This document shows positions 41,801-44,800 of a stretch of 64,000 nucleotides of DNA, piece by piece. Position 1 is the first letter of the stretch, and every line of letters starts with the position of its first letter. A model generated the notes under the pieces. The model saw nothing but the letters and a program-made list of their open reading frames with translations. It was not told the origin of the DNA and did no database searches. The position numbers and the translations under genes were made by a program. This stretch comes from Morinoia aosen. Its lineage: Eukaryota; Arthropoda; Malacostraca; Amphipoda; Talitridae. The stretch lies in the NCBI GenBank assembly GCA_030386875.1, contig CM059575.1, forward strand, positions 52,172,859 through 52,236,858. The letters run 5' to 3'.

Positions 41801-44800
41801 ATACGTAGAATGAAAAGAAGAACCAATATAAAAGGGAACATTCCTTTAATCGCAAACGTTTCGGAATCTCTGATTCCATCATCAGTGCTGTAAAACAAGG
41901 AATGAAAAACGATAATGAACAAATTGTGAAAAGCTATAAGAAATTAATATCACTATACCTACATCAAAAAATAGCTTTGCCTAACAATTAAAAATAAAAA
42001 CACAATTTCTATTAAACATTCGGAGTCATACGTACACATACACCTAAATTCTAGCAATCAAACCAACGCACAATAACATCTACACAAAGTAACAGAACTG
42101 CATACACAGACACACACACATACATTCAAACACATTCGTATTTACACAGTTGGGGCAATATTTAATTTCATCGCACTTTGATCATTATTTAGCTGAGGTC
42201 TATGGGTAAAAATGAACAATGATTCCAAATTCTAAGATCAAATTCCTCTGCAGTTCTACTAAGTGTGGAGAAATTGGAGCTTTTGAAAGGGTTATACCAC
42301 CAGGGACGTTCACCACCTCTGTTTATAGAAAACCTACATTTCCGGATTATGTACCAATTTCTTCATTTTCATTAACAAGGGTTATATTAAAGCAAGTGTC
42401 ACTACACTACTGCATAGAGCATACCGTATTTCAAGTTCATATACAATATTTCATGACGAAGTGGAATATATCACAAAGTTACTTGTACAAAATAAATACC
42501 CTGTGTCTTTAATCAACAATCTGGTTAAAAGTTTTTAGATAAAAAATTTTCCCCTCCTACTACAATTCTGACCGCGCCAAAACAGAAAGTTTATGTCGAG
42601 CTCCTTTCTTGAGCTATCTTAACAAGGAGATGAAAAAGAAGCTTATGTCCCTGATACACTCTCATTTTACTTCTATTGATGTGCCACCATTTTATAGAAA
42701 AAGTTTTAAAATAGGTTCATTTTTTATTAGGAAAGAGCGTTTGGAAGAGTGCCTGAGAAGTGGTTGCGTATATTTGTATAAATGTGATTGCTGCCTGTAG
42801 TCCTATGTTGGAAGTACCACACTCCAGCAATTTATTCGTCACCGCCAACACTCGGGTATCTCCCATTGAACCGGCCGTCCATACTCATCTCCCTCCCAGT
42901 CAGCCATCAGAGATCATTGCCATAGTTCAAACCACCCTTTCAAAAGCTCCAATTTCTCCACACTTAGTAGACCTACAGAGGAATTTAACCATAGAATTTT
43001 GGAATCATTGTTCATTTTTACCCATAGACCTCAGCTAAATAATGATCAAAGTGAGATGAAATTAAATATAGCCCCAACTGTGTACATACGAATGTGTTTG
43101 AATGTATGTGTGTGTGTGTCTGTGTATGCAGTTCTATTACTTTGTGTAGATGTTATTGTGCGTTGGTTTGATTGCTAGAATTAAGGTGTATGTGTACGTA
43201 TGGCTCCGAATGTTTAAGAGAAATTGTGTTTTTATTTTTAATTGTTAGGCAAAGCTATTTTTTGATGTAGGTATAGTGATATTAATTTCTTATAGTTTTT
43301 TCACAATTTGTTCATTATCGTTTTTCATTCCTTGTTTTACAGCACTGATGATGGAATCAGAGATTCCGAAACGTTTGCGGTTAAAAGAATGTTCCCTTTT
43401 ATATTGGTTCTTCTTTTCATTTTACGTATTAAATCTCCCTGTATAATTTAATGTATAAAACAATGCTTAATGATGACAACAAAGACCTCAAACAATTACT
43501 AACTGTACAAACTGGTTATTACGACCATTTAACCATAAATAGAAGTAACTTCATGCTTCCTTATTATTCCAAAGCTCGGTCACAACATAGTATCCTCTTC
43601 AATTAGAACTAAGATTCGAACTCAATCCTTGTAAAGATCCGTGAAAGAAATTCGGAAAGAAGCTTTCAAAATAAGTCTTGAATCCCTTTTCCTATCGCAA
43701 TATTAATCATGAATAATGACCGAGTCAAATCTCTTCTCCTAAATGACTCATCCTGATAGATTAATTTGGCATGGTGAATGTCATTGATCATCAGTCTGTT
43801 CTCAAGTCGTTTCTATTGTACAAAATTCTACATGTCGATGTAAATTTAAATTCAAAATGTAAAATTTAGATACCTGCGGCTGATACGTGCTAGCACATTT
43901 TGTTCGGAACTTCATTCAAGACGTGACCGCAGCTGACCTCAAAACGCAACAAGTTTGAGCGTCAGATTCCTCACCAACCCGCTACTGTTCACTTCATCTA
44001 ATCTCTAGTGCCGTGTAATGCATTCAGGCAACGTAACGTTTACGGTTACACTTCAGCCCAGGTTCGCGTGCTGTACTACTGTATTGGCGTACTGTTTGCG
44101 CGCTAGACCATCGTCACCGCCTCTGTGGGCTGCCTGTCCGGAGGGACCCGTGGACGTGTGGGAGCTTCTCGGACCGTCGCATTGATGGCCCAGACTGGGT
44201 AACCGTGGAGTGTGCCAGGAATACTCTTACGGCGTATCAATTATGAGCTATAACGTTCTGGTCCTCTGAGCAAGAACCTGATAAAATTTTACTTTAAATG
44301 CCGTGTATTGTATAGATCAACCTGTAGCTATTACTATTTATATTTCAAAACGTTCAATAACTATTGCCCAGACTGTAACGGTGATTGTAACTGTAATTTA
44401 CTAAGAAATTTCATTTATAGGCATAAAAGTGTGCGCTGGATGGGAGATGCCTGGAGGGAGGAGTTGTGAGTGGTCTCTGGTTAAAAATAAAACTTTCCTT
44501 AGAGCCCTTGACTTTTCTTCAATCTTTCATTATTCTGCGCATCTATAATATACTGTTAACATCTAGCCCATTTAAACCATTTTGTAAAATTAAGCATCGA
44601 ATTTCGAGTGAAATAATTCACTAACCAGTCTACAACTCAACTATACATATATTTAGGTTTAGTAAATTAGGTATTACATAATTGTACGCCTAAAAGCCCG
44701 TTTACACTAGGGGCGTCACACGGCGTCAAGCGCCTCACCGCCCCTCTGTGCAGCAGCTACGTGCGCTTCAGGCGAGTATCCGAGTGATAGACCAGCTAGC

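What the first reader, a model, noticed from the sequence alone, without database searches (positions are those of the whole stretch)
43341..43377. Hammerhead ribozyme motifs at both outer ends of a palindromic Penelope-like element
CTGATGA, a 6-bp stem II and GAAAC occur in the correct order on the plus strand at 43345-43372 and, inverted, at 41860-41885. Decayed versions sit in the same position in the 9 kb copy. Hammerheads in Penelope-like elements are known, but an inverted pair flanking one element could release or circularise transcripts from either strand. Self-complementary AAACGTTT suggests a minimal stem III that may work as a dimer.
Basis: partly seen in the sequence, partly recalled or inferred. 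Interest (0 to 1): 0.72.

Follow-up and report, generated by a model that had tools for sequence, protein, structure and literature searches.

The report
Paired hammerhead ribozymes in palindromic retrotransposon
Two identical small motifs of a self-cutting RNA kind face outward from a mirror-image copy of a known kind of jumping gene; the motif and the mirror layout are both known, but the copies in this genome suggest that the mirror shape forms because the element copies itself into both strands of the DNA break.

Summary
Both arms of the 41.8-43.4 kb palindrome carry one identical 37-nt hammerhead (HHR) sequence (43342-43378 +, 41852-41888 -). It resembles the minimal, stem-III-poor, dimer-type HHRs of Penelope-like elements (PLEs), with an extra U between A9 and stem II. 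Rfam's models do not detect it. Well over 1,900 copies in the same 2 Gb genome, covarying stems II and I, and a covariance model from other PLE families (E 4e-9) support it.

The inverted pair is not a special device. It is the published PLE layout: inverted pLTRs inside one 13-bp target duplication, with an empty-site paralogue in this window. In the listings, inverted pairs face outward 72 times and inward once. Of 52 counted palindromes, 45 (strict cut-off) have one long "tail" end and one shorter end, none has two long ends, and all have unequal ends. Two set-aside groups have equal ends. This argues against self-priming and for two target-primed reverse transcriptions, one per strand.

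Each strand carries one sense HHR, so this copy cannot form a cis dimer. Insertions run past the cut site, so the inserted RNA was not cut there. Cleavage was not tested. Known kind; the unequal-ends rule is the new part.

The parts
43342..43378 (+). minimal dimer-type hammerhead: stem I 5' strand GCA, CUGAUGA core, extra U, 6-bp stem II with AGA loop, GAA, self-complementary ACGU (stem III in a dimer), U17, predicted cut, stem I 3' strand UGC
   Evidence: covariance model from other families 41.7 bits, E 4.4e-9
41852..41888 (-). identical hammerhead in the inverted arm
41771..43430 (+). one palindromic, 5'-truncated Penelope-like insertion; left arm inverted with long tail, right arm sense with short tail
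41758..41770 (+). left copy of 13-bp target site duplication AAATCTCCCTGTA
43431..43443 (+). right copy of the target site duplication
41791..42292 (-). left (inverted) arm of the palindrome, about 500 bp, segments 92-97% complementary to the right arm
   Evidence: I2, I3, I5, I9; gapped self-alignment 95.7% over 506 nt
42934..43439 (+). right arm of the palindrome
42216..43038 (+). broken remnants of the C-terminal half of the PLE ORF, with stretches resembling the open frame of L059 (..TSVYRKPTF.., ..YKCDCC..)
   Evidence: one search compared by eye; DNA homology to L059
41737..41943 (-). open frame of the inverted arm holding MFPFILVLLFILRIRFPKNRPFNS, the ORF N-terminus that makes up the pLTR end plus tail
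59327..59751 (-). empty-site paralogue of the target repeat: aligns across the insertion point with one target copy, 74% over 436 columns (41 bp of it left of the target site)
10182..10219 (+). intact hammerhead of the second palindromic PLE copy (CUGAAGA core)
8678..8715 (-). damaged hammerhead of the second copy (G8 to A)
8591..10265 (+). second palindromic PLE insertion; long tail left, short tail right; 14-bp target duplication with one mismatch

Best explanation
The motifs are the pseudo-LTR hammerheads of a Penelope-like retrotransposon. Each is a minimal type-I hammerhead without a hairpin stem III. Two RNA copies must pair through the self-complementary ACGU to make two active cores, each cutting after U17 and using a 2-3 bp stem I. 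They sit as an inverted pair because this copy is one insertion made by two reverse transcriptions, one primed from each target strand. Both started in the 3' end of element RNA (one at the long tail site, one at the short site), were 5'-truncated separately, and were joined head to head between 13-bp target duplications. In a multi-unit PLE transcript the hammerheads repeat in tandem about 2.87 kb apart. A cut there would fall 9-47 nt upstream of the likely ORF start, so the likely job is making the 5' end of, or monomerising, the ORF RNA, while uncut read-through RNA is what gets inserted. Shown here: motif, covariation, single insertion, outward geometry, unequal ends. Inferred: cleavage in vivo, dimer assembly, the two-strand priming, and the role in RNA processing.
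For: Motif and copy number. Stem II: the third and fourth pairs are standard in 65 and 69 of 75 distinct strings (shuffled means 54.4 and 36.3; 0 of 10000 shuffles as high). Stem I: pair 2.1-1.1 is A-U in 36 of 37 copies of the window's group and standard in 95 of 100 rows of other families, 93 of them G-C. Structure count on 11 sequences: 87.9% paired against 73.0% shuffled. A model built without this family finds both copies. Single insertion: 13-bp duplication and empty-site paralogue. Geometry: 39 outward and 0 inward neighbours within 5 kb among 231 listed sites, 33 outward and 1 inward among 175 listed sites of other families. Ends: with a tolerance of 8 nt, one long and one shorter end in 31 of 33 palindromes and in 14 of 19 of a fresh test, together 45 of 52; 0 of 52 long/long; the two ends differ by 17 or more reference positions in 52 of 52. 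Uncut template: 94 of 94 aligned copies extend past the cut, the shortest by 8 nt. Cutting and extension of both strands by a PLE protein and two start sites that bound the tail: PMC11167929 (main text).
Against: Rfam reports no hammerhead. The core has one extra nucleotide after A9 that a canonical hammerhead lacks. Free folding prefers other structures: the two-strand minimum is -22.5 against -13.7 kcal/mol for the double hammerhead. ACGU was held fixed in the searches from then on, so stem III has no covariation test; the search meant for it did not complete. In PMC11167929 a related ribozyme did not cut without protein, and blocking it did not affect insertion. Stem I pair 2.3-1.3 is unpaired in 47 of 100 rows. 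Seven of 52 palindromes lack a clear long end at the strict cut-off (L014, L037, L084, L086, L090, L106, L112). Two groups set aside (L011/L015; L064-L066) have equal ends and inverted flanks; counted as failures they make it 45 of 54. Four of five single copies that I extended had no mate within about 4.6 kb, so not every insertion is two-ended. Separate truncation points and near-blunt joins fit self-priming as well. Arms were nearest neighbours or tied in only 9 of 22 comparisons, a test confounded by short arms and near-identical families.
Confidence: 0.7

Rival explanations
1. The palindrome arose by self-priming: a cDNA or antisense RNA folded back at the element's 5' side and was copied outward, as suggested for rotifer Penelope elements (PMC3846280).
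For: Head-to-head inverted structure with 5' ends in the middle, as that paper describes. Arms of six copies are 99.4-100% identical. Two groups that I set aside (L011/L015; L064/L065/L066) do have equal ends and inverted flanking DNA.
Against: Self-priming copies one end from the other, so both ends should stop at the same site. In the 52 palindromes counted the ends differ by 17 or more positions, and none has two long ends. A single target duplication surrounds this copy.
Confidence: 0.12
2. The inverted hammerhead pair is selected for: it lets transcripts from either strand be cut, released or circularised.
For: Both hammerheads in this copy are intact. Inverted pairs are common in the genome listings.
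Against: Only one sense motif lies on each strand, and it needs a partner in the same sense. The other arm is antisense and would pair with it in a very long hairpin. Inserted copies carry sequence beyond the cut, so RNA cut at that motif was not the template. Geometry and ends are explained by integration alone.
Confidence: 0.07
3. Two independent PLE insertions in opposite orientation, or recombination between them, produced the inverted pair.
For: One inward pair of neighbouring motifs exists (C3:51292090/51292852), which looks like two adjacent elements.
Against: One target duplication flanks the whole palindrome and a paralogue shows the empty site. 72 outward against 1 inward neighbour is not expected from independent insertions.
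Confidence: 0.03
4. The motif is a conserved piece of PLE sequence kept for another reason (coding, or recognition of the RNA by the protein) and is not a working ribozyme.
For: The likely ORF start lies just downstream, and in families F1 and GAG the frame from the motif's own AUG is also open to the end of the stretch read. A related ribozyme was inactive without protein and not needed for insertion (PMC11167929).
Against: Stem II changes while pairing is kept and the core stays fixed. Stem I changes in pairs. The frame through the motif is closed in five of seven family strings read (F2a-F2d, TAG).
Confidence: 0.15

Closest known systems
Minimal type-I hammerhead ribozymes of Penelope-like elements (Cervera and de la Pena 2014; Lunse, Weinberg and Breaker 2017)
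   Same: Minimal motif without a proper helix III, in the pLTRs of PLEs, thought to cleave as dimers (passages of PMC7761336, PMC6155905 and PMC7229834; the two original papers are not held and were seen only as titles in reference lists)
   Different: I could not check whether the extra U between A9 and stem II is described there; here it is the rule in the high-copy families listed
Typical Penelope structure with inverted pLTR (Arkhipova et al. 2013, PMC3846280; passages and discussion seen)
   Same: ORF, direct and inverted pLTR, one target duplication, short tail extension optionally on one of the inverted pLTRs, 5' ends meeting in the middle
   Different: Unequal ends are counted here over 52 palindromes and argue against their self-priming reading
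PAc element of Anolis (Frangieh et al. 2024, PMC11167929; main text seen)
   Same: PLE with hammerhead beside the ORF start, two internal RT start sites that bound the tail, both DNA strands cut and extended
   Different: In PAc the ORF is said to begin at stem II; here the conserved N-terminal peptide starts 9-47 nt downstream of the cut
Retrozymes (non-autonomous elements with hammerheads)
   Same: Type-I hammerheads in repeats of a retroelement (passages)
   Different: These motifs lie in PLE copies with ORF sequence, in palindromes or in tandems of about 2.7-2.9 kb, not in tandem repeats of a few hundred bp

Membership tests
Hammerhead ribozyme | conserved core C3UGANGA9 and G12AA14 around stem II | tested here: met
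   both window copies; 18 columns invariant over 11 family strings, which were found by patterns holding the core fixed
Hammerhead ribozyme | A9 directly followed by stem II (canonical core) | tested here: not met
   one extra residue, mostly U. Patterns with it gave 412 and 1526 hits that cannot overlap and 831 that partly overlap; a pattern without it gave 120 hits (8 in the control), and by my count by eye 56 of the 100 listed are copies with G in the extra place. Filed as a PLE-type variant, not as canonical
Hammerhead ribozyme | covarying stem II | tested here: met
   the two outer pairs were held fixed as G-C by the patterns
Hammerhead ribozyme | covarying stem I next to the cut site | tested here: met
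   pair 2.1-1.1 A-U or G-C, pair 2.2-1.2 C-G, A-U or U-G; third pair not kept in all families
Hammerhead ribozyme | match to Rfam hammerhead models | tested here: not met
   none at gathering score in 64 kb, none at E up to 10 in the palindrome or in three loci
Hammerhead ribozyme | self-cleavage after N17 | not testable with these tools
   needs an RNA cleavage assay
Dimer-type minimal hammerhead of PLEs | stem III too short for a monomer, self-complementary so that two copies share it | tested here: inconclusive
   ACGU can pair with itself and the double structure is nested with 22 pairs at -13.7 kcal/mol, but the free two-strand minimum is -22.5; no variation of stem III was sampled
Penelope-like element | reverse transcriptase ORF | tested here: met
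   RVT_1, E 9.3e-14, in a 691-aa open frame of relative L059; the window copy keeps only broken remnants
Penelope-like element | GIY-YIG endonuclease domain (endonuclease-containing PLEs) | tested here: inconclusive
   not reported by Pfam at E 0.01; a stretch resembling the motif (YKCDCC..TYVGST) is seen by eye only
Penelope-like element | inverted pLTR, tail on one end, target duplication | tested here: met
   this copy; others:

The most novel reading that the evidence does not exclude
Penelope-type elements integrate by a paired reaction in which both target strands prime reverse transcription, and the two initiations are coupled so that one uses the distal (tail) start site and the other a proximal site on element RNA. 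The palindrome with unequal ends, carrying an outward hammerhead on each arm, is then a normal end product of integration rather than an accident, and the hammerhead just upstream of both start sites would decide whether an RNA becomes cut ORF message or uncut insertion template.
Probability: 0.5. Interest if true: 0.66.

Novelty: new member of a known kind. Interest (0 to 1): 0.45.

Why it matters
How Penelope-like elements insert, and why they leave inverted and tandem structures with an optional tail, is left open in the two papers seen (PMC3846280 discussion; PMC11167929 main text). The counts here separate two routes: unequal ends and a single target duplication fit two target-primed events better than self-priming. 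They also show that inserted RNA was not cut at its 3' hammerhead, which narrows what the ribozyme can be for.

Tried and rejected
Idea that the extra U serves the ORF start codon (it makes A9-U-G an AUG, and PAc's ORF is said to begin at stem II): not favoured. A hydrophobic N-terminal peptide (LVLLFILRIRFPKNRPI and relatives) is open from a second AUG 9-47 nt after the cut in the five family strings (in L059 it opens a 501-aa frame), and the frame from the hammerhead AUG is closed in F2a-F2d and TAG. In F1 and GAG that frame is also open to the end of the stretch, so the idea is not excluded there.

Idea that palindromes with about 1.27 kb spacing are a separate mobile palindromic family: rejected. 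L009, L012, L013, L016-L019, L022, L023 and L025-L028 share sequence well beyond the insertion, so they descend from one insertion amplified inside another repeat (its output was cut, and L077 was put in this group by eye from its right end). I counted that group once (L016).

Left out of the 33 palindromes: L011/L015 and L064/L065/L066, which have inverted flanks beyond both ends and equal ends, treated as inverted duplications of host DNA; L045, because its locus ends inside the arm; L038, L049, L050, L053 and L055-L058, which are the same or duplicate loci as ones counted. L051, whose mate turned up later with a short end, was not added. In one search L100/L101 duplicates L098/L099 and was counted once (19 of 20). 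The cut-off for a long end (within 8 nt of the full tail) was set after seeing the data; with 15 nt the counts are 32 of 33 and 16 of 19.

Test whether both arms come from one RNA by nearest-neighbour identity: inconclusive, 9 of 22 nearest or tied, with short arms reading into unrelated sequence.

Test for insertions whose 5' end lies at the hammerhead cut: not done. The DNA query for it did not complete. In one search I saw no arm starting at the cut, but only L059 has arms long enough to reach it.

A weak model hit at 20892-20933 (E 0.53) lies a few hundred bases from a separate inverted repeat and was taken as chance.

Full report
What was checked. The arms are about 500 bp, 92-97% complementary by segment and 95.7% over 506 nt in a gapped self-alignment. 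The 9 kb palindrome has the same layout. Its + arm is intact, since CUGAAGA fits CUGANGA, while its - arm has lost G8.

Rfam and a fairer covariance test. Rfam 15 finds no hammerhead at gathering score in the window, nor at E up to 10 in the palindrome or in three loci with the motif. I attribute this to the models expecting a closed stem III; that is inference. I built a model from 11 motif strings of other families (from, not the 41.8 kb family). It finds both arms at E 4.4e-9, the 9 kb copies at 1.7e-9 and 1.7e-6, and nothing else below 0.5 in 64 kb. One of the 11 strings equals the 9 kb + copy, so only the 41.8 kb pair is an independent test, and the strings share its core by selection.

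Copies in the genome. The window lies in an unnamed 1.99 Gb genome of 29 contigs. The core with this stem II frame occurs 831 times (control 0), a CUGAAGA group 412 times (control 0), and families with GAAACGTTV 1526 times (control 0). The last two cannot overlap; overlap in part. Listings show only the first 100 or so places of each search; totals are the tool's.

Structure. Among 75 distinct stem II strings typed, the third pair is standard in 65 and the fourth in 69, against shuffled means of 54.4 and 36.3 (0 of 10000 shuffles reach either). The two outer pairs were fixed by the patterns. In one search three bases on each side of the core were read for the 100 listed copies (the outermost base on each side could not be A): pair 2.1-1.1 is standard in 95 (G-C in 93), pair 2.2-1.2 in 93, the third pair in only 53. 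In 37 copies from loci that were not selected on these flanks (window and the group) pair 2.1-1.1 is A-U in 36, pair 2.2-1.2 C-G in 33, and the third is standard in 35. The counting tool gives 87.9% paired cells against 73.0% in shuffles and 61% or less in slid registers, for a structure that I chose. Stem III could not be tested: ACGU was fixed in the patterns that gave the family strings, and the search meant to free it did not complete. Free two-strand folding prefers another structure (-22.5 against -13.7 kcal/mol).

The extra U. The high-copy families listed have one residue, mostly U, between A9 and stem II. A pattern without it gave 120 hits with 8 in the control; by my count by eye 56 of the 100 listed are copies with G in the extra place. 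An extra core nucleotide has been reported in a viroid hammerhead (title only, in a reference list). Whether the PLE papers report it I could not check, because they are not held.

What the palindrome is. It is one insertion: AAATCTCCCTGTA occurs at 41758-41770 and 43431-43443, and a paralogue of the target at 59751-59327 aligns across the joined flanks with a single target copy, 74% over 436 columns, 41 bp of them on the left side. The left end carries the long form of the 3' end (pLTR plus tail) and the right end the short form. The end region encodes a hydrophobic N-terminal peptide (LVLLFILRIRFPKNRPI and relatives), which opens a 501-aa frame in L059. [quoted passage not shown] L059 also has a 691-aa open frame with RVT_1 at E 9.3e-14; the endonuclease domain was not confirmed by Pfam.

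Geometry. Among 231 sites (100 rows, 100, 31), neighbours within 5 kb are 39 outward, 0 inward and 4 in the same direction. Among 175 sites of other families they are 33 outward, 1 inward and 5 in the same direction. At even odds, 1 or fewer inward of 73 has probability 8e-21; copies related by later duplication are included, so this overstates independence.

Ends. In 33 palindromes from fetched loci, counting an end as long if it reaches within 8 nt of the full tail, one end was long and the other shorter in 31. L014 and L037 have no clear long end, and L020 is at the limit. A target duplication scoring 10 or more was found in 23 of 33. After the sequences of two further families had been requested, but before I had seen any of them, I wrote down the prediction (fetched). 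Of 20 pairs (19 independent), 14 were long/shorter by the same cut-off. L106 and L112 stop 10 and 15 nt before the full tail, and L084, L086 and L090 pair the short form with a still shorter one. Duplications of score 12 or more were found in 15 of 19, one of them (L112) inside a local repeat. Together that is 45 of 52 (48 of 52 with a 15-nt tolerance), 0 of 52 long/long, and ends that differ by 17 or more positions in 52 of 52. The chance of 45 of 52 at even odds is 3.5e-8; if the two set-aside groups with equal ends are counted as failures it is 45 of 54, 3.6e-7. The loci were chosen because they keep the motif, on both arms in most cases. Of five apparently single copies that I extended, one had a mate further out and four did not within about 4.6 kb.

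Mechanism. Self-priming, suggested for rotifer elements (PMC3846280), copies one end from the other and predicts equal ends. Two separate target-primed reactions allow unequal ends with one target duplication, as seen. Separate 5' truncation points and near-blunt joins fit both. PAc protein cuts and extends both strands and starts at two sites that bound the tail (PMC11167929, main text). That paper saw no start-site difference between strands in vitro; the coupling inferred here was not in the passages that I saw. A search for papers holding Penelope, both strands, target-primed reverse transcription and inverted returned only that paper, in a library that lacks most subscription journals.

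The ribozyme's role. In 94 of 94 aligned copies the inserted sequence runs past the predicted cut, the shortest by 8 nt; one further pattern match (L041, reading CTGATAA) gave no alignment. L059's arms hold two motifs 2866 nt apart in one template. So the inserted RNA was not cut at its 3' motif. The cut would fall 9-47 nt before the likely ORF start in the five family strings read, so I infer a role in making the 5' end of the ORF RNA or in trimming multi-unit transcripts. A dimer is possible within one RNA for tandem copies, but in this palindrome only between two RNAs. The related PAc ribozyme needed protein to cut and was not needed for insertion, so activity here is unproven.

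Noticed in passing
L009, L012, L013, L016-L019, L022, L023, L025-L028, L077 (whole loci): One old palindromic PLE insertion seems to have been copied many times as part of a larger repeat, in both orientations, so many hammerhead pairs 1.2-1.4 kb apart are not independent.
   Followed up: partly
L011/L015 and L064/L065/L066: Palindromes that continue into the flanking DNA on both sides, with equal PLE ends; possible inverted duplications of host DNA, or rare self-primed products.
   Followed up: no
G000 C6:1167319-1194689 and C2:28497553-28503037: Runs of PLE hammerheads about 2.6-4.7 kb and 2.73 kb apart on the same strand, with G in place of the extra U: candidate multi-unit arrays with cis dimers.
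   Followed up: no
L059 (G000 C4:59524300-59533800): A 7.8 kb palindrome whose arms each exceed one full unit and agree at 99.2% over 3.5 kb, with a long RT-bearing open frame.
   Followed up: partly
window 20347-20504: 70-bp inverted repeat, 94% complementary, with an 18-nt loop, away from the PLE.
   Followed up: no
window 30753-31004 and 33045-33296: 252-bp direct repeat, 99% identical, 2292 bp apart, with a weaker related stretch at 14176-14275.
   Followed up: no
window 41717-41757, 43444-43821 and 59327-59751: The PLE sits inside another dispersed repeat whose second copy in the window is the empty site.
   Followed up: yes
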